From positions 19,369,001 through 19,433,000 of the forward strand of contig OX031058.1 of NCBI GenBank assembly GCA_943736015.1: a stretch of DNA of 64,000 bases. Reading direction: 5' to 3'. The translations under genes and the position numbers were made by a program. The stretch comes from Tridacna crocea. Its lineage: Eukaryota; Mollusca; Bivalvia; Cardiida; Cardiidae. Shown one piece after another: positions 4,079 to 59,965 of this stretch. Position 1 is the first letter of the stretch; each line of letters begins with the position of its first letter. The notes beneath the pieces are model-generated. The model worked only from the letters and a program-made list of their open reading frames with translations. It was not told the origin of the DNA and did no database searches.

Positions 4079-4278
4079 CCTGGGCTCGTATTCACCGACC
4101 ATTCTTAAAAACGTCCTTTGTCTTATTCTCCAGAATTTTACAAATTGGAAAGTAACATAACTTCTGATTGGCTAAACCAAATGGTTTAGCCAATGAGAAG
4201 TTATGTTACTTTCAAATTTAGAAAATCTTGAAGATGATAAGAATATTCTCGTGAGTGATTGGTGAATATGGGCCTTGG
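4079..4278. mobile_element. Family G foldback element
   Basis: An almost fully palindromic 200-bp unit. CCTGGGCTCGTATTCACC pairs with GGTGAATATGGGCCTTGG. In the centre TTCTGATTGGCTAAACC is followed by its near mirror GGTTTAGCCAATGAGAA. Two other copies lie at 7047 and 59759, so it is a small MITE family. No clear target duplication is visible. Confidence 0.8.
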
Positions 4279-5007: not shown

Positions 5008-5290
5008 TGAAAAGGGGGCTTAATGCATCTGCAAAAAGTTTCGGCCCTGGTCAGCCTGCGCAGTCCGCGAAGGCTGACCAGGGCCGAAACTTTTTGCTTT
5101 CGATCGTTTTCTCTGGATGTCCAAGGACCAGACTACCTCAGGATTGAGTCATTTGTCAGACAAAAATGGATAAAATTGATCCAAAACAATGTGATGACTA
5201 GTATGGTATTTAAGCTCCTTTTCCAATGGTTTAGAATTGTAATAAATTGGCACATCATAAATCTGTTAACCTTTTCAGCTGCATAAGCGA
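5008..5290 (+). repeat. Family B palindromic repeat
   Basis: GGGGGCTTAATGCATCTGC leads into an imperfect 67-bp palindrome (about 5031-5097). Its arms contain TTTCGGCCCTGGTCAGCCTG and its core is CGCAGTCCGCG. The right flank GTCCAAGGACCAGACTACC ... GATTGAGTCATTTGTCAGAC recurs at 10.4, 22.7 and 26.0 kb. The short frames across it are palindrome artefacts. Confidence 0.8.
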
Positions 5291-10285: not shown

Positions 10286-10590
10286 GGAGGCTAAAATAAT
10301 GCATCTGCGAAAAGTTTCGACTCAGGTCAGCCTGCGCACTCCGCGCAGGCTGACCTGAGCCAAAACTTTTCGCTATTAAAAAAATTACTGTACGTTCAAG
10401 GACCATTCTACCTCATGGATAAGTCGTTTGTGGAAGAAAGTGGCTATTATGGATCCATTATTATGCAATGGCTTGCTTGGCGTCATTTTTCACGGAGATC
10501 CATTAAGACCTCTTTTGGCAGAGCACGGCTCATGTGTTTTCACCAATACGAAAATATTAAATGTGACACAAATAATGGAATTTGTCTACA
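10286..10590 (+). repeat. Family B palindromic repeat
   Basis: GGAGGCTAAAATAATGCATC leads to a palindrome at about 10306-10373. Its arms carry TCAGGTCAGCCTGCGC and GCGCAGGCTGACCTGAG around ACTCC. The flank TTCAAGGACCATTCTACCTC, GATAAGTCGTTTGTGG ... GGATCCATTATTATG matches other B copies. The 79- and 76-codon frames here are inside the repeat. Confidence 0.82.
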
Positions 10591-11139: not shown

Positions 11140-12022
11140 CACAGGCCATAACTGTCTTATATTGTCCTAAAACATTTCTTTATGTGATATTTTGGATCAT
11201 CTAGTCGTTTTTTAAGTCTATTATTTGCTATATGCGTTACGAGGTGTGGTCTTTGCATTACGTTATGTGGTCTTTATATTACGTGGTGGTGTTTTAAGAT
11301 TATGTTATGGTGTTAAATTGTTATGTCATGTAGTTTCTTCATTACCTTATGTAGTCTTCTTACTACGATGTGCGGATATTATATGACGTGATGTGGTTTT
11401 GAGATTACGTTATGTAGTCTTTATATTACGTGATGGTGTTTTTAGATTACATTATGGTGTTAAATTGTTTTGTTATGTAGTTTCCTCTTTATCTTATGTA
11501 GTGTTTTTATTACGTTGTGGGGATATGATAGGACGTGATGTGGTTTTGAGATTACGTTATGGTGTTTTCCTTTATCATGATGACGTCTTTTTAATACACC
11601 GTTTTATCTAATTGTTATTTCATGTAGTTTTCACATTACTTTATGTAGTATTCTTATTACGTTGTGTGGTTATTATATGACGTGGTGTTGTTTTAAGATT
11701 ATGTTATGGTCATTATGAATGAAAGCATTGTGAGCAAAGGAGAAGTGCTTTTGTAAGCAATTTCTTCTTTCCCCAAATGCTTTCTACTAAGTAAATACTT
11801 ATTTTAACCAGTACACAATCGCTTTGAATTTTCGTGTGCAACTTTTATTTTGGACATGTCTGAAATTTTGTCACTTGGTAATGGATTTATATATCAAAGA
11901 ACAAAGACATTTGATATATAATCTATAGCTATCCGAAGGAACTCTATGTGTATTATTCTGTTTGGTTAAGTTCGACAAAAATGCAAAAAGTTGAAACCAA
12001 TCCAAATGATTTTCACAAACAT
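11140..12022 (+). repeat. Segment J, copy 1 of a dispersed inverted duplication
   Basis: The segment from CCATAACTGTCTTAT to CAAATGATTTTCACA recurs in reverse complement at 21062-22466. In order it holds a unique 90-bp head, a 147-bp-period tandem core (11239-11700), a variant A palindrome (GCATTGTGAGCAAAGG / CCAAATGCTTTC, 11725-11788) and an A right end GTCACTTGGTAATGG. A tail containing AGCTATCCGAAGGAACTC closes it. This copy has four tandem registers. Confidence 0.88.
11239..11700 (+). repeat. 147-bp tandem array inside J
   Basis: The landmark ACG(T/A)G-G-TGTGGT recurs at 11239, 11386, 11533 and 11680, an exact 147-bp step. Monomers are dense in TTACGT and TGACGT words. The two frames across the array are by-products of the repeats. 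Confidence 0.88.
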
Positions 12023-13665: not shown

Positions 13666-14221
13666 CAAACTTAGAACAGGTTCACTACATCCAAATAATA
13701 TACCTCTATGCCTTCTAGTTTTAGGAAAGAAGAATTTTAAATTTTTCCTTATTTGTTCCTTTGATCGAACTTGTGACCCCGGGGTGGAGCCAGTTTGACC
13801 CCCAGGGACATCATATGAACAAACTTGGTAGAGGTCCACTAGGAGATGCTAGATACCGAATATCAAAAATATATGCCTGTCACTTTCAGAGAAGAAGAAT
13901 TTTAAAGTTTTCATTCTTTGTACCTATGTTCAAACTTGTGATCCCCTGGGCGGGGCCAGTATTGACCTCAGGGCATTATATGAACAAACTTGGTAGAGTT
14001 CCACTAGGAGATGCTACACACCAAATATCAAAGCTCCACGCCTTCCAGTTTCAGAACAGAATAATTTTAAAGTTTTGCTTCTTTGTTCCCATGTTGAAAC
14101 TTGTGCCCCCCTGGCCAGTATTGGCCCAGTTGGATCATATGAACAAATTTGGTAGAGGTCCACTTGGAGATGCTACATACCAAATATCAAAGCTCCAAGC
14201 CTTCCAGTTTCAGAGAAAAAG
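13666..14221 (+). repeat. 166-bp-type monomers, three diverged copies
   Basis: TTTGTTCCTATGTTCAAACT-like landmarks at about 13753, 13916 and 14075. Each unit contains TGACCCCAGGG, CATATGAACAAACTTGGTAG and CCACTAGGAGATGCTA. The 168-codon frame 13761-14267 is the longest in the window. It runs through these monomers and is a repeat artefact: the same words continue past it in all frames. Confidence 0.85.
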
Positions 14222-15905
14222 AAACAAGAGGACCATGATGGTCCTATATCGCTCACCTGAGTACTAAGCTGTAAAATCAAACTTGTGGCCCCTGGGACGG
14301 GGCCGGTTTGGACTCCAGGGGCATCCTAAGAAAAAACTTGGTAGAGGTCCATTAGGAGATGCTACTTACAAAATATCAAAGCTCTACACCTTCTAGTTTC
14401 AGAGATGCAGAATTTTAAAGTTTTCCTTCTTTGTTCCTATGTTTCGAATTTGTGACCTCTGGGGCAGGGCAAGTTTTGACCCAAGGGACATATTATGAAG
14501 ACACTTTGTAGAAGTCCACTAAGAGATGCTATATCATCCCAAATATCAAAGCTCTATGCCTTCTAGTTTCAGAGAAGAAGAATTTTTAAGTTTTCCTTCT
14601 TTGTTCCTATGTTTTAAACTTGTGACCCCCGGGGCAGTGCCAGTTTTGACCCCAGGGACATCACATGAACAATCTTGGTAGAGGTCCACTAGGAAATGCT
14701 ACATACCAAATATCAAAGCTCAACGCCTTCTAGTTTCAGAGAAGAAGAATTTTAAAGATTTCCTTCTTTGTTCCTTTGTTACAAACTTGGGACCCCCGGG
14801 ATAGAGCTAGTTTTGAGCTCAGGGACATCATATGAACAATCTTGGTAGAGGTCTACTAGGAGATGCTACATACCAAATATCAAAGCTCTGCACCTTCTAG
14901 TTTCAGAGAAGAAGATTTTTAAAGTTTTCCTTCTTTGTTCCTATGTTTCAAAATTGTGACCCCCGGCGCAGGGCCAGTTTTGACCCCAGGGGCATCATAT
15001 GAACAATCTTGGTAGAGGTCTACTAGGAGATGCTTCATACCAAATATCAAAGCTCCAAGCCTTCCAGTTTCAAAGAAAAAGAAACAAGAGCACCATGATG
15101 GTCCTATATCGCTCACCTGAGTACTAAGCTGTAAAATCAAACTTGTGGTCCCTGGGACGGGGCCGGCTTGGACTCCAGGGGCATCCTAAGAAAAAACTTG
15201 GTAGAGGTCCATTAGGAGATGCTACTTACAAAATATCAAAGCTCTACACCTTCTAGTTTCAGAGATGTAGAATTTTAAAGTTTTCCTTCTTTGTTCCTAT
15301 GTTTCGAATTTGTGACCTCTGGGGCAGGGCAAGTTTTGACCCAGGGGACATATTATGAAGACACTGTAGAAGTCCACTAAGAGATGCTATATCATCCCAA
15401 ATATCAAAGCTCTATGCCTTCTAGTTTCAGAGAAGAAGAATTTTTAAGTTTTCCTTCTTTGTTCCTATGTTTTAAACTTGTGACCCCCGGGGCAGTGCCA
15501 GTTTTGACCCCAGGGACATCACATGAACAATCTTGGTAGAGGTCCACTAGGAAATGCTACATACCAAATATCAAAGCTCAACGCCTTCTAGTTTCAGAGA
15601 AGAATAATTTTAAAGATTTCCTTCTTTGTTCCTTTGTTACAAACTTGGGACCCCCGGGACAGAGCTAGTTTTGAGCTCAGGGACATCATATGATCATTCT
15701 TGGTAGAGGTCCACTAGGAGATGCTACATACCAAATATCAAAGCTCTGCACCTTCTAATTTTAGAGAAGAAGAATTTTAAAGTTTTCCTTCTTTGTTCCT
15801 ATGTTTCAAAATTGTGACCCCCGGCGCAGGGCCAGTTTTGACCCCAGGGGCATCATATGAACAAACTTGGTAGAGGTACACTAGGAGATGCTTCATACCA
15901 AATAT
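14222..15905 (+). repeat. 860-bp higher-order duplication
   Basis: Landmarks at 14221, 14341 and 14531 recur at 15081, 15201 and 15389, so a block of about five monomers including the head was duplicated in tandem. Only scattered differences are visible (for example GATGCAG / GATGTAG and a 2-base loss near 15364), so the duplication is recent compared with monomer divergence. Confidence 0.85.
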
Positions 15906-16685
15906 CAAAGCTCTGCACCTTCTAGTTTCAGAGATGAAGAATTTTAAAGTTTTCCTTCTTTGTTCCTATGTTTCAAACTTGTGACCCCAGGGGCGGGACC
16001 AGTTTTGACCCCAGGGGTATCATATGAACAATATTGATAGAGGTTCACTAGGAGATGCTACATACCAAATATCAAAGCTCTGCACCTTCTTGTTTCAGAG
16101 ATGAAGAATTTTAAAGTTTTCCGTCTTTGTTCCTATGTTTCAAACTTGTGACCCCAGGGGCGGGACCAGTTTTGACCCCAGGGGTAAAATATGAATAATC
16201 TTGGTAGAGGTCCACTAAGAGATGCTACATACCAAATATCAAAGCTCTGCACCTTCTAGTTTCAGAGATGAAGAATTTTAAAGTTTTCCGTCTTTGTTCC
16301 TATGTTTCAAACTTGTGACCCCCGGGGCAGGGCCAGTTTTGACCCCAGGGGCATCATATGAACAGTCTTCGTAGAGGCCTGCTAGGAGATGCTACATACC
16401 AAATTTCAAAGCTCTACGCCTTCTAGTTTCAGAAATCTTGAAAGATTTTGCTATTTTTTTTCCTTTTGGTTGCCATGGCAACCAGAGTTACGGGTGGGAT
16501 TCAATCTCTTGAACAACTTTGGTAGAAATTCACCCAAGGAACATCCCTGCCAAGTTTCATCAAGATTGGCCCAGTGGTTTAGGAGAAGAAGATGTTTAAA
16601 GAAATTGTGGATGACGCACGACGGACGACGGACATTGGGCGATCACAAAAGCTCACCATGAGCACTTCGTGCTCTTGTGAGCTAA
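14222..16685 (+). mobile_element. Helitron-like tandem-core element, about 166-bp monomers
   Basis: The head AACAAGAGGACCATGATGG / TCCTATATCGCTCACCTGAG occurs at 14222 and again at 15082. Monomer landmarks (CTTTGTTCCTATGTTT) step by about 165-172 bp to 16290. The tail CCATGGCAACCAGAGTTACG, TGCCAAGTTTCATCAAGATT and CACAAAAGCTCACC precedes a hairpin GAGCACTTCGTGCTC and CTAA at 16682-16685. A hairpin just before CTAA fits a Helitron-type 3' end. No Rep/helicase frame is present, so it is non-autonomous. Confidence 0.7.
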
Positions 16686-21428: not shown

Positions 21429-21629
21429 CCTATTACCAAACGACAAAATTTCAGACCTGTCCAAATTAAAACTTGCACACGAAAATTCAAAGCGATCGTG
21501 TACTGGTTAAAATAAGTATTTACTTAGTAGAAAGCATTTTCGGAAAGAAGAAATTGCTTACAAAAGCACTTCTCCTTTGCGCACAATTCTTTCATAAATA
21601 ATGACCATAACATTATCTCAAAACAACAC

Positions 21630-22370
21630 CACGTCATATAATAACCACAGAACGTAATACAAGACTACAAAACGTAATGTGAAAACTGCATGATACAACA
21701 ATTTTACCAAAGAATGTATTAAAACGACATCATAACGATTAAGGAAAAGGCCATAATGTAAGTTCAAAACCACATCACGTAATATAATAACAACACAACG
21801 TAATAAGAAGACCACCAAACGTAATGCGAAAACTACATGACATAACAATTAAATAGCATGGTGTATTAAAAAGACATCATCATGTTAAAGGAAAACACCA
21901 TAACGTAATCTCAAAACCACATCACGTCTTATAGTATCCCCACAACGTAACAAGAAGACTACATAAGGTAATGGGGAAACTGTATGACATAACAATTTAA
22001 TAACATAATGTATTAAAGATATATCATCATGATAAGGGAAAACACCATAACGTAACGTCAATACCACATCACGTCATATCATATCCCCACAACGTAATAA
22101 GTATACTACATAAAGTAACAAGGAAAATACATGACAAAACAATTTGACACCATAATGTAATCTAAAAACACCATCACGTTATATAAAGACGACATAACGT
22201 AATGTCAAAACCACATCACGTCATATAATATCCGCACATCGTAGTAAGAAGACTACATAAGGTAACGAGGAAACTACATGACATAACAATTTAACACCAT
22301 AACGTAATCTTAAAACACCACCACGTAATATAAAAACCACATAACGTAATGCAAAGACCACACCTCGCAA
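21630..22370 (-). repeat. 147-bp tandem array inside J copy 2
   Basis: CCAC(A)TCACGT words end at 21634, 21780, 21927, 22074, 22221 and (as CTCGC) 22368, giving steps of 146, 147, 147, 147 and 147 bp. The minus frames here are repeat artefacts. Confidence 0.88.
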
Positions 22371-31727: not shown

Positions 31728-31956
31728 TTAACCCATTGTCACACAATACCTACTTTTGACGCCCCTGAGAAAGAAGCCTTTAGAAAACATTGTGGGAAAA
31801 GGAGAAAATGCTGGTAACCAGCATTTTCTCCTTTTCCCACAATGTTTTCTACCCTTCACAAAACAAAATTCAAATTTTCAGTGGCTTTTATTTTGTCGTC
31901 TGCAAATGCTTTCAATTTGGACTAGTCTAAAATGTTGTCGTTTGGTAATGGGTTAA
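31728..31956 (+). mobile_element. Family A element, best-preserved copy
   Basis: 229 bp, TTAACCCATTGTCACACAAT to TTTGGTAATGGGTTAA. The centre is a perfect 71-bp palindrome (31781-31851; 35-bp arms around A31816). The segment GACGCCCCTGAGAAAGAAGC precedes it and TTTGTCGTCTGCAAATGC with TTTGGACTAGTCTAAAATG follows. It is a good reference for the family. It encodes no protein of note and relies on another element for movement. Confidence 0.96.
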
Positions 31957-34942: not shown

Positions 34943-35171
34943 TTATTTCTTTACCACACGACAAAATTTTAGACTGGTCCAAATTGAAAGCATTTGCAGA
35001 CGACAAAATAAAGGTGACTGAAAAATTGAAATTTGTTCTTTGAAGGGTAGAAAACACTGCGGGAAAAGGAGAAAATGATGGTTACCAGCATTTTCTTCTT
35101 TTCCTACAGTGTTTTCAAAAGACTTCTTTCTCAGGGACGTCAAAAGTAGGGATTGTGTGGTAATGGGTTAA
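34943..35171 (-). mobile_element. Family A element, full length, mirrored palindrome change
   Basis: 229 bp ending GTGTGGTAATGGGTTAA; the left TTAA is degenerate. The left arm reads AACACTGCGG and the right CTACAGTGTT, so C35057 pairs with G35109 where the consensus has T and A. Confidence 0.92.
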
Positions 35172-37207: not shown

Positions 37208-37436
37208 CTAACCCATTACCAAACGGCAATATTTTAGACTGGTCCAAATTGAAAGCATTTGCAGACGACAATATAAAAGTGACTGAAAATTTGAAATTTG
37301 TTTTGTGAAGTGCAGAAAACATTGTGGGAAAAGGAGAAAATGCTGGTTACCAGCATTTTCTCCTTTTCCCACAATGTTTTCTAAAGGCTTCTTTCTCGGG
37401 GTCATCAAAAGTAGGGCCTGCGTGGTAATGGGATAA
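37208..37436 (-). mobile_element. Family A element, full length, perfect palindrome
   Basis: 229 bp, CTAACCCATTACCAAACGGC to GTGGTAATGGGATAA. Arms AGAAAACATTGTGGGAAAAG ... mirrored without a mismatch around GGTTACC. Both outer TTAA motifs carry one substitution. Confidence 0.95.
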
Positions 37437-39001: not shown

Positions 39002-39230
39002 TTAACCCTTTATTCCATAGATACTCATTTCTACACATTGCTTGTAGGAGCCTTTGGAAAACATTGTGGCAAAAGGTGAAAGTGCTCGTCACGAACAATT
39101 TCATATTTTGTCACAGTGTTTTCTATGTTATCAAAAGGTGTCATATACTCATAAAAAACGGTTTCATCCTTGCTGTTATTGAAGGTCAATAAAAGATACC
39201 ATAGAAATGCCTTATGGGGTAGAGGGTTAA
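39002..39230 (+). mobile_element. Subfamily D element, full length
   Basis: 229 bp, TTAACCCTTTATTCCATAG to TAGAGGGTTAA. ACATTGTGGCAAAAGG, tip GTGCTCGTCACGAAC, then GTCACAGTGTTTTC. It shares length, end motifs and outer arms with A but differs in the inner sequence and tip. A sister copy is at 49746. Confidence 0.85.
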
Positions 39231-39383: not shown

Positions 39384-39588
39384 AGACCTTTACCACACAG
39401 TGCCAAGTTTTTAATGACCCTGGGAAAGAATTCTTGTGAAAACATTGCAGGAAAAGGAGAAAATGCTGGTAACCAGCATTTTCTCCTTTCCCTACCATGT
39501 TTTGTATCCTATCAAAGAAATATTCCACTGTTTGAGCCACATTAAAATTGCTGTCTGCAAATGCTCTCAATTTGGAAAAACCTTTAAC
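39384..39588 (+). mobile_element. Family A element, right end cut
   Basis: GACCTTTACCACACAGTGCC, palindrome with GGAAAAGGAGAAAATGCTGG mirrored, AAATTGCTGTCTGCAAATGC / TCTCAATTTGG. It then breaks into the next copy before reaching its own right terminus. Confidence 0.85.
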
Positions 39589-39593
39589 CCATT

Positions 39594-39812
39594 ACCACAC
39601 AATGCCTACTTTTGATGCCCCTGAGAAAGAAGCCTTTTGAAAACACTGTGGGAAAAGGAGAAAATGCTGGTAACCAGCATTTCCTCCTTTTCCAACGGTG
39701 TTTTCTACCCTTCCCGGAACAAATTTTAATTTTTCAGTCACATTCATTTTGTCGTCTGCAAATGCTTTCGATTTAGACCAGTCTAAAATTTTGTTGTTGG
39801 GTAATGGGTTAA
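39594..39812 (+). mobile_element. Family A element, mirrored palindrome change
   Basis: TTAACCCATTACCACACAAT to TTGGGTAATGGGTTAA. Left arm AACACTGTGG, right arm CGGTGTTTTC, so C39646 pairs with G39698. The closing TTAA is shared with the next copy. Confidence 0.93.
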
Positions 39813-40070: not shown

Positions 40071-40300
40071 TTAACTCTTTACCACATAATCCCGACTTTT
40101 GACGACCCTGAGAAAGAAGCCTATAGAAAACATCGTGGGAAAAGAAGAAAATGCTGTTATACCAGCATTTTCTCCTTTTCCCACAATGTTTTCTTCCCTT
40201 CCTAAAGCAAATTTCAATTCTTTAGTCACATTTATTTTGTTGTCTGCAAATGCTTTCAATTTGGAACAATCTAAAATTTTGTTTCTTGGTAAAGAGTTTA
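40071..40300 (+). mobile_element. Family A element, full length
   Basis: TTAACTCTTTACCACATAAT to TTGGTAAAGAGTTTA, 230 bp. Palindrome nearly intact (tip GCTGTTATACCAGC). Confidence 0.93.
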
Positions 40301-49745: not shown

Positions 49746-49975
49746 TTAACCCTTTACTCCATAGATACTCAGTTTGACGTATCAACAACAGACAGCTTTT
49801 GAAAACATTGTGGGAAAAGGAGAAATTACTCGTAAAGAGCAATTTCTCCTTTTCCCACAATGTTCTCTGCTCAATCAGATATTTGTATCCTCATTTGTCC
49901 ATATTTTTTGACATCATATCTTTATTTGCTGCTGAAACGGTAGAGCCTCAAATTGGCATATCAGGTCAAGGGTTA
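49746..49975 (+). mobile_element. Subfamily D element, full length
   Basis: 230 bp, TTAACCCTTTACTCCATAGA to AGGTCAAGGGTTAA. Outer arms are the A type (ACATTGTGGGAAAAGGAG); tip AAATTACTCG-TAA-AGAGCAATTT. Left inner sequence ATAGATACTCA is shared with 39002. Confidence 0.9.
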
Positions 49976-50146
49976 ATAAAGGTTTTTTTTTTCTCTTTAA
50001 AAGAGACCTATTACTTGTTGCAGAATGGGCATCATCATGTAGATAACTCTTTTGTAATGGTTTGAATTGTCAGATTTATTTTTGTGTGCTCTCAGAATTA
50101 TATTAGTTCTAAAGTGTATTGCGTTTCTCTGCTCTGCGACTTCTAC

Positions 50147-51368: not shown

Positions 51369-51597
51369 TTAACCCATTACCACACGAGAGAATTTTAGAC
51401 TGGTCCAAATTCAAAGCATTTGCAGACGACTAAATAAAGGCGACTCAAAAATAGAAATTTGTTCTGGTAAGGGTAGAAAACACTGTGGGAAAAGGAGAAA
51501 ATGCTGGTAACCAGCATTTTCTCCTTTTCCCACAGTGTTTTCAAAAGGCTTCTTTCTCAGGGGCGTCAAAAGTAGGGATTGTGTGGTAATGGGTTAA
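51369..51597 (-). mobile_element. Family A element, full length, mirrored palindrome change
   Basis: 229 bp, TTAACCCATTACCACACGAG to GTGTGGTAATGGGTTAA. Arms AACACTGTGGGAAAAGGAG and their exact mirror CCCACAGTGTTTTC. C51483 pairs with G51535, replacing the usual T-A. Confidence 0.96.
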
Positions 51598-59758: not shown

Positions 59759-59965
59759 TCCTGGGCCCATATTCATCAACCATTCTTGAGAGTATTCTTA
59801 GTCTTATTCTCCAATGTTTTCTATATTAGTAAGAAACACAACTTCTGATTGGCTAAACCGAATAGTTTAGCCAATCACAAGTTGTGTTACTTACAAATGT
59901 AGAAAATTCTTGAGAATAAGACAAAGAATGTTTTAAGAATGCTGGTTGTTGAATAGGGGTCCTGG
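59759..59965. mobile_element. Family G foldback element, copy 3
   Basis: CCTGGGCCCATATTCATCAA mirrored by TTGTTGAATAGGGGTCCTGG; centre CTTCTGATTGGCTAAACC / GAATAG / TTTAGCCAATCACAAG. Flank GGAGTTTC(T/A)TTTA(C/T)CATTA is shared with the copy at 4079. Confidence 0.85.

What the first reader, a model, noticed from the sequence alone, without database searches (positions are those of the whole stretch)
31728..31956. High-copy 229-bp element with TTAA ends and a perfect 71-bp central palindrome
More than 60 full or partial copies fill this window, and intact ones are 227-231 bp. Each has TTAA outside, CCCTTTACCA-type inverted ends, two different inner modules and a long hairpin in the middle. TTAA targets with CCC-starting ends fit a piggyBac-type MITE. 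A strictly conserved long inverted repeat inside such a MITE is not a feature I know of for the group. Constant length and an intact hairpin across diverged copies suggest that the hairpin itself matters, for mobility or as transcribed RNA.
Basis: partly seen in the sequence, partly recalled or inferred. Interest (0 to 1): 0.85.

Follow-up and report, generated by a model that had tools for sequence, protein, structure and literature searches.

The report
Hairpin-core transposon filling a genome
A tiny piece of jumping DNA makes up about a fifth of this genome, and the long hairpin in its middle has mostly been kept foldable by paired changes in the versions that spread, which suggests that the hairpin helps it to multiply.

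Summary
The 229-bp element at 31728-31956 has TTAA flanks, CCC...GGG ends and a perfect 71-bp palindrome. Profile hits cover 24% of the window and 20.3 +/- 2.4% of 30 other 5-kb stretches (29 of 30 hit), which extrapolates to about 1.2 million hits in the 1.05-Gb genome. Perfect 29-bp cores of type A alone number 208,145.
At least three families (A, B, C) share the ends, a length near 229 bp and the hairpin position. A's flanks are 33-46% identical to those of B and C, its hairpin 85-90%. Hairpin differences are mostly symmetric: pairs 3, 8, 13 and 20 between families, pair 26 within A. Half-changed forms are rare at pairs 3 and 13, not at pair 26. After insertion the hairpin mutates like the flanks, but variants shared by many copies are depleted (9 of 137 alleles against 122 of 328).
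Reading: a TTAA/piggyBac-like MITE clan whose hairpin is selected in the copies that spread. No autonomous partner with these ends was found. The mechanism is inferred.

The parts
31728..31956 (+). The reported element, a full-length family-A copy of 229 bp including both TTAA
31728..31731 (+). Left TTAA (target site duplication)
   Evidence: 106 of 113 A copies have at most one mismatch to TTAA at each end
31732..31741 (+). Left terminal inverted repeat, CCCATTGTCA here, consensus CCCTTTACCA
31742..31780 (+). Left inner module (differs between family A and families B and C)
31781..31851 (+). Central 71-bp perfect palindrome (67 bp in the consensus), the conserved hairpin core
31852..31942 (+). 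Right inner module (differs between families)
31943..31952 (-). Right terminal inverted repeat, CCCATTACCA on the minus strand
31953..31956 (+). Right TTAA
39002..39230 (+). Family-B copy, 229 bp: same ends and hairpin position, different flanks, B-type hairpin
49746..49976 (+). Family-C copy, 231 bp: hairpin intermediate between A and B
51369..51597 (-). Family-A copy of the subfamily with the symmetric pair-26 change (CACTGTGG...CCACAGTG)
37209..37436 (-). Full-length family-A copy, 92% identical to the reported one
34951..35171 (-). Near full-length family-A copy, pair-26 subfamily
39584..39812 (+). Full-length family-A copy, pair-26 subfamily
40071..40298 (+). Full-length family-A copy

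Best explanation
This is a clan of very high-copy, non-coding TTAA-specific (piggyBac-like) MITEs. SHOWN: the architecture is ends, a hairpin core at a fixed place, and two replaceable flanks. In the copies that spread, the ends, the total length and the hairpin are conserved, and hairpin changes are mostly made on both arms, so that a strand can still fold. In copies that merely sit in the genome the hairpin decays like the rest. INFERRED: a piggyBac-type transposase acts on the ends, and the hairpin is a cis-acting part that raises the chance of a copy being mobilised. Its foldability (as an extruded cruciform, or as a hairpin on single-stranded DNA during replication or excision) would bring the ends together or recruit the transposition or replication machinery. 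Selection therefore acts among elements for ability to multiply, not on the host.
For: Abundance: 20.3 +/- 2.4% of 30 stretches; 208,145 A, 16,497 B and 10,723 C perfect 29-bp cores, reversed-pattern controls 0. Architecture: A 229, B 229, C 230 and 231 bp; hairpin at 54-124 in these; hairpin identity of A to B and C 0.85-0.90 against flank identity 0.33-0.46. Symmetry: complementary double changes 107 observed against 31.8 in shuffles (maximum 48 in 500). Families differ at pairs 3 and 8 (A against C), 13 and 20 (C against B), and at pair 26 inside A. Half-steps rare: 207 against 10,723 and 16,497 for pair 13; 679 beside 208,145 for pair 3. MK-like test: rare substitutions per base 0.0366 in the hairpin, 0.0386 and 0.0366 in the flanks; alleles above 5%: hairpin 9 of 137, flanks 122 of 328, p = 6e-13; ends 8 of 52; against the left flank alone p = 1e-7. 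No indel shared by more than 5% of 85 copies between positions 13 and 215, although rare indels run at 0.19 per rare substitution. Little correction of arms in place: 9 complementary doubles against 4.0 expected outside the family-diagnostic pairs in 123 A copies.
Against: Asymmetric variants also spread. Pair 22 left G to A is in 13 of 122 A copies. Pair 21 right is T in 7 of 13 B copies while the left stays G, leaving G.T. At pair 26 the left half-step has 1,940 exact copies against 9,352 symmetric ones (right half-step not counted), and in the sample 12 copies are symmetric, 8 left-only and 3 right-only. Only about five symmetric pair changes are well supported, and the C consensus rests on two copies plus the genome-wide core count, so independent events are few. 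Close pairs of copies (flank distance under 0.05, 21 pairs; 0.05-0.10, 197 pairs) already show a hairpin-to-flank ratio of 0.53, where equal rates after insertion would give about 1. Families A and C differ by an indel in the right flank. Templated correction of one arm by the other could give the symmetry without selection for folding. No autonomous partner, transcript or transposition assay is available.
Confidence: 0.55

Rival explanations
1. Templated symmetry without function: a mutation in one arm of the palindrome is copied to the other by template switching or hairpin mismatch repair during replication or transposition, so the palindrome keeps itself perfect.
For: Symmetric changes at pairs 3, 8, 13, 20 and 26. 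Slight excess of private complementary doubles, 9 against 4.0.
Against: It explains symmetry, but not why shared variants of any kind are about 8.5 to 10 times rarer in the hairpin than in the flanks while rare mutations are equal (my arithmetic on the rates; allele counts). Immobile copies show little correction.
Confidence: 0.25
2. The hairpin works as RNA: read-through transcripts fold into a 33-35-bp stem that is processed or binds a protein, and this favours the element.
For: Very stable on either strand, -56.1 and -54.6 kcal/mol. Some tolerated one-sided changes leave G.U pairs.
Against: No Rfam family matches the window at the gathering score. The predicted loop is three bases, unlike a typical microRNA precursor (recalled). 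Double-stranded RNA from a transposon is usually a silencing trigger (recalled).
Confidence: 0.15
3. The palindrome arms are inverted binding sites for a transposase or host dimer, selected for sequence and not for folding.
For: piggyBac and piggyBat transposases bind short palindromes near the ends through their cysteine-rich domains (PMC11707139, passages). Hairpin sequence is conserved, not only pairing.
Against: Half-site binding does not need base-by-base transversions on both arms (pairs 3, 8, 13, 20). The palindromes described there are of 14 and 19 bp, not 67-71.
Confidence: 0.2
4. Each family made its own palindrome anew by inverted duplication of a single diverged arm.
For: Would also give symmetric differences between families.
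Against: Same centre (GT-N-AC) in the A, B and C cores, same start and nearly the same total length. Pair 26 changed inside family A in copies with very similar flanks.
Confidence: 0.04

Closest known systems
CMITEs of Acropora corals (PMC2872659; abstract, Results part 1 of 2, Discussion and found passages read)
   Same: TTAA target, CCCTTT-type ends, several MITE families that share an internal region more conserved than their ends, tandem copies, internal region suggested to aid transposition.
   Different: About 100 bp against about 229 bp; about 1,600 copies estimated in A. millepora against about 1.2 million hits here. A main-text search for palindrom, hairpin and secondary structure found none. 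Whether the 75-base internal region is homologous or palindromic could not be tested: I saw no full sequence in the text read.
REPINs of bacteria (PMC3116915; passages read)
   Same: Short, non-autonomous, dispersed, hairpin-forming; [quoted passage not shown] selection inferred on the hairpin as the replicating unit.
   Different: Bacterial, associated with RAYT transposases; the TTAA target and piggyBac-type ends found here are not features of that description.
piggyBac and piggyBat transposons (PMC11707139; passages read)
   Same: TTAA-targeting superfamily with palindromic transposase-binding sites near the ends.
   Different: Those palindromes are short and subterminal; here one long palindrome lies internally, 53 and 105 bp from the outer edges of the element.
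T2-MITEs of Xenopus, Kolobok superfamily (PMC6004289; passages read)
   Same: TTAA target, long-lived and abundant MITEs.
   Different: Termini AGGRR, not CCC; the word hairpin does not occur in the main text.

Membership tests
TTAA/piggyBac-like MITE | TTAA target site duplication | tested here: met
   65 of 113 A copies exact at both ends, 106 of 113 within one mismatch at each end. 10 of 71 neighbouring full-length pairs overlap by about 4 bp, as expected for a shared TTAA (junction letters not checked). One nested case had one TTAA decayed.
TTAA/piggyBac-like MITE | Terminal CC[C/T]T-type inverted repeats | tested here: met
   Consensus CCCTTTACCA at both ends of A; CCCTTTAC at both ends of B and C. 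The reported copy itself has CCCATT.
TTAA/piggyBac-like MITE | Short, non-coding, high copy number | tested here: met
   229 bp; about 1.2 million hits by extrapolation
TTAA/piggyBac-like MITE | Autonomous partner with the same ends in the genome | tested here: inconclusive
   118 PF13843 matches, 30 loci held. Paired ends read at 12 of 30 plus L038, none CCCTTTACCA. For the other 17 no pair was found within 1.5 kb, so their ends are unknown. CCCTTTACCA-like ends seen lie at MITE copies.
Kolobok MITE | 5'-RR...YY-3' termini | tested here: not met
   Ends are CCC...GGG; criterion from PMC9587614
CMITE | Internal region more conserved between families than the rest | tested here: met
   A-B hairpin 0.85, inner flanks 0.41-0.46; the outermost 12 bp are also shared
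CMITE | Length of about 100 bp | tested here: not met
   A 229, B 229, C 230 and 231 bp
CMITE | Sequence homology of the internal region | not testable with these tools
   I saw no full CMITE sequence in the text read, and coral genomes are not among the collections offered
Known structured RNA | Match to an Rfam family | tested here: not met
   0 matches at gathering score in the window
REPIN | Linked RAYT transposase in a bacterial genome | not tested
   The genome has 1.05 Gb and carries PF13843 transposase matches, so a RAYT search was not made

The most novel reading that the evidence does not exclude
The internal palindrome is a required folding element in transposition: these MITEs multiply through a hairpin formed on single-stranded or cruciform DNA, so a TTAA cut-and-paste system has acquired a structure-dependent, perhaps replication-coupled, amplification step. 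That would account for one element clan reaching about a fifth of a 1-Gb genome.
Probability: 0.3. Interest if true: 0.85.

Novelty: new variant of a known kind. Interest (0 to 1): 0.7.

Why it matters
How MITEs without genes reach enormous copy numbers is an old question. With more than 200,000 perfect hairpin cores and post-insertion decay at the same rate as the flanks as an internal control, this genome lets one separate what selection keeps in the copies that spread from what mutation does afterwards. It points to a specific, testable part, the hairpin, as a reason for success. A single clan at about 20% of 1.05 Gb is also, as far as I recall and did not search systematically, unusually dominant for a DNA element.

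Tried and rejected
Autonomous partner: PF13843 search of the genome, paired TTAA/CCC ends in the flanks of 30 loci (a pair at 12), relaxed end search in 10 of them (L038 has CCCTCTAG at both ends). None has CCCTTTACCA. At 17 of the 30 no paired end was found, so the search is incomplete. The transposase loci L025-L029, L034 and L037 share a longer repeated unit that already contains nested MITE copies, so I did not take them as the partner.

Hairpin inside autonomous piggyBac: L038 (985-1051, 3433-3488) and L010 (five weak matches) show hairpin-like stretches around the transposase. With about one hairpin hit per kb (217 in 214 kb) this is expected by chance, so I did not use it.

Nested insertion as proof of the target: one clear nested case in L008, but one TTAA had decayed; not used.

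Kolobok origin: rejected on termini. Known RNA family: rejected. Three ORFs of 120 aa or more in the window: no Pfam match; not pursued.

Searches for the sequence or the phenomenon in print. In one search, 18 papers hold one of four sequence words (17 the 12-base word, 1 TTAACCCTTTACC); judged from titles and abstract beginnings alone, none is about this element. One search returned 0 papers. No listing that I saw showed a TTAA MITE with a long conserved palindrome; the library holds open-licence papers only.

Single-linkage clustering of flanks put 177 copies in one group and was replaced by Louvain clustering, which split families by orientation. Family labels therefore rest on flank similarity. 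One search failed on a parsing error and was rerun.

Full report
OBSERVATION. The element at 31728-31956 is as described: TTAA, CCC-type ends in inverted orientation, and a perfect 71-bp palindrome at 31781-31851. The window is part of an unnamed 1.049-Gb genome in 31 contigs. A profile built from the copies gave 92 non-overlapping hits in the window, covering 24%. In 30 further 5-kb stretches at preset round coordinates (L039-L068; not chosen by content, though not truly random) it gave 170 hits, 93 full length, covering 20.3 +/- 2.4% (standard error), with 29 of 30 stretches hit and none in reversed sequence. Extrapolated by me: about 1.2 million hits, about 650,000 full-length copies and about 210 Mb. 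The profile was partly trained on copies from these stretches, and it also picks up families B and C through the hairpin. Independent of the profile, exact 29-bp palindromic cores occur 208,145 times for type A, 16,497 for B and 10,723 for C; the patterns read backwards occur 0 times. Of 122 long palindromes in 214 kb, 96 lie in the element.

ANATOMY AND FAMILIES. Besides the main family A there are B (window 39002-39230) and C (window 49746-49976, L053), plus thinly sampled further variants. A is 229 bp and B 229 (consensus), the two C copies 230 and 231, and the hairpin lies at 54-124 in each. Individual B copies hit from end to end range from 222 to 235 bp. All begin TTAACCCTTTAC and end GGGTTAA. 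In-register flank identity is 0.46 (left) and 0.41 (right) for A-B; 0.46 and 0.33-0.42 for A-C, where the right flank shifts by an indel; 0.63-0.68 and 0.33-0.36 for B-C. The hairpins are 0.85 (A-B), 0.89-0.90 (A-C) and 0.85-0.86 (B-C) identical. For family C, the 40 places scored in the genome (a cap; the window copy included) are 92-100% identical.

SYMMETRIC CHANGE. Counting pairs outward from the centre, A and C differ at pair 3 (G-C against C-G) and pair 8 (A-T against T-A); C and B differ at pair 13 (A-T against T-A) and pair 20 (G-C against C-G). All four are transversions on both arms. C looks intermediate; the direction is not known. A subfamily of A carries T-A to C-G at pair 26: 12 of 123 A copies have both changes, 8 the left alone and 3 the right alone (copies listed). 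In 178 hairpins there were 107 complementary double changes against a shuffle mean of 31.8 and maximum of 48 in 500; related copies inflate this. Genome-wide, the half-step between C and B at pair 13 has 114 + 93 exact copies and the half-step at pair 3 in an A background has 317 + 362, far fewer than the symmetric forms. Against this, the pair-26 left half-step has 1,940 copies beside 9,352 symmetric ones (exact 57-base patterns with A at the centre; right half-step not counted), pair 22 of A has a one-sided variant in 13 of 122 copies, and pair 21 of B is T on the right in 7 of 13 copies, leaving G.T. So symmetry is the rule in what spreads, not a law.

WHERE SELECTION ACTS. For 113 family-A copies (identity 0.78 or more, fewer than 20 gaps; the locus duplicating the window and six loci duplicating one repeated unit dropped; some loci had been fetched by similarity to the reported copy or beside transposases) I split substitutions into rare ones, taken as mutations after insertion, and ones shared by more than 5% of copies, taken as inherited from sources. 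Rare substitutions per base, CpG excluded, are 0.0366 in the hairpin, 0.0386 in the left flank and 0.0366 in the right flank. Shared alleles are 9 of 137 in the hairpin, 122 of 328 in the flanks and 8 of 52 in the ends (hairpin against flanks p = 6e-13; against the left flank alone p = 1e-7). So the hairpin is about as constrained as the ends in the lineages that spread, and free once inserted. Length behaves alike: 73 rare indels against 383 rare substitutions in positions 13-215 of 85 copies, and no indel there shared by more than 5%. A caveat: close pairs have a hairpin-to-flank distance ratio of 0.53 rather than 1 (21 pairs under 0.05 and 197 pairs at 0.05-0.10, not independent), which the simplest version of this argument does not predict. 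Outside the diagnostic pairs, private complementary doubles are 9 against 4.0 expected in 123 A copies: little correction of arms in place.

IDENTITY. The TTAA target (106 of 113 copies within one mismatch at each end; 10 of 71 neighbouring full-length pairs overlap by about 4 bp) and CCC ends match piggyBac and not Kolobok (5'-RR; PMC9587614 passages). The genome has at least 118 PF13843 matches; 26 of the 30 best have no internal stop. Paired TTAA/CCC ends were found at 12 of the 30 loci held and at L038, none of them CCCTTTACCA; at the other 17 no pair was found within 1.5 kb. The partner may be among these, among the 88 matches not read, lost, or a relative with partly similar ends.

MECHANISM. 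Shown: ends, length and hairpin are what the spreading lineages keep. Inferred: transposase acts at the ends, and the hairpin, folded on one strand or as a cruciform, raises mobilisation. Transversions on both arms fit pairing better than half-site recognition, but the strong sequence conservation leaves room for a bound protein. Templated correction could supply the symmetry; it does not supply the lack of shared variants. RNA function is untested; the hairpin is nearly equally stable on both strands and matches no Rfam family at the gathering score.

KNOWN RELATIVES. Coral CMITEs share the oddity of an internal region more conserved between families than the ends, with TTAA and CCCTTT ends (PMC2872659: abstract, Results part 1 of 2, Discussion and passages). 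They are about 100 bp, and no palindrome or hairpin is mentioned in the main text. Bacterial REPINs show compensatory hairpin changes and selection on a hairpin unit (PMC3116915, passages). I therefore rate this a new variant of a known kind. Searches whose listings showed no earlier report of this element: limited to open-licence papers.

The number of transposase loci whose ends could actually be read (13 of 30), the lower bound of flank identity (33%), the count of papers with the 12-base word (17 of 18), the half-step counts at pair 26 in the sample and the B counts at pair 21 were corrected or added.

Noticed in passing
window 5031-5097, 10307-10373; L041 4848-4914, L047 2928-2992, L055 1723-1789, L063 3878-3944, L066 2551-2617: A separate palindromic repeat family (GCGAAAAGT...CAGCCTGCGCA...), about 65 bp, seen several times among the palindromes outside the reported element.
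   Followed up: no
window 4135-4226, 59817-59906; L041 1046-1109, L045 540-616, L055 909-981: Another palindromic repeat family with arms like GAAAGTAACAC..TTCTGATTGGCTAAACC.
   Followed up: no
L025-L029, L034, L037: Seven loci carry closely similar piggyBac transposase matches and share a nested MITE copy in the same place (six of them share more), so a longer unit that includes them was duplicated or moved as a whole.
   Followed up: partly
L014-L019, L023 (paired ends read); same transposase cluster L013, L031, L033: A piggyBac-like element family with ends CCCTTTATATAC, about 2.8 kb; four copies (L014-L017) have an open 624-aa frame.
   Followed up: no
L038 985-1051 and 3433-3488: Diverged hairpin-like stretches of the same kind lie on each side of an open transposase frame, between TTAA/CCCTCTAG ends; this may be chance, since hairpins occur about once per kb.
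   Followed up: partly
window 13685-16433: Long tandem array with a 167-bp unit (334-bp double unit).
   Followed up: no
window 11245-11708 and 21604-22362: Two arrays with a 147-bp unit; hairpin copies at about 11720 and 21594 have similar flanks including satellite-like sequence.
   Followed up: no
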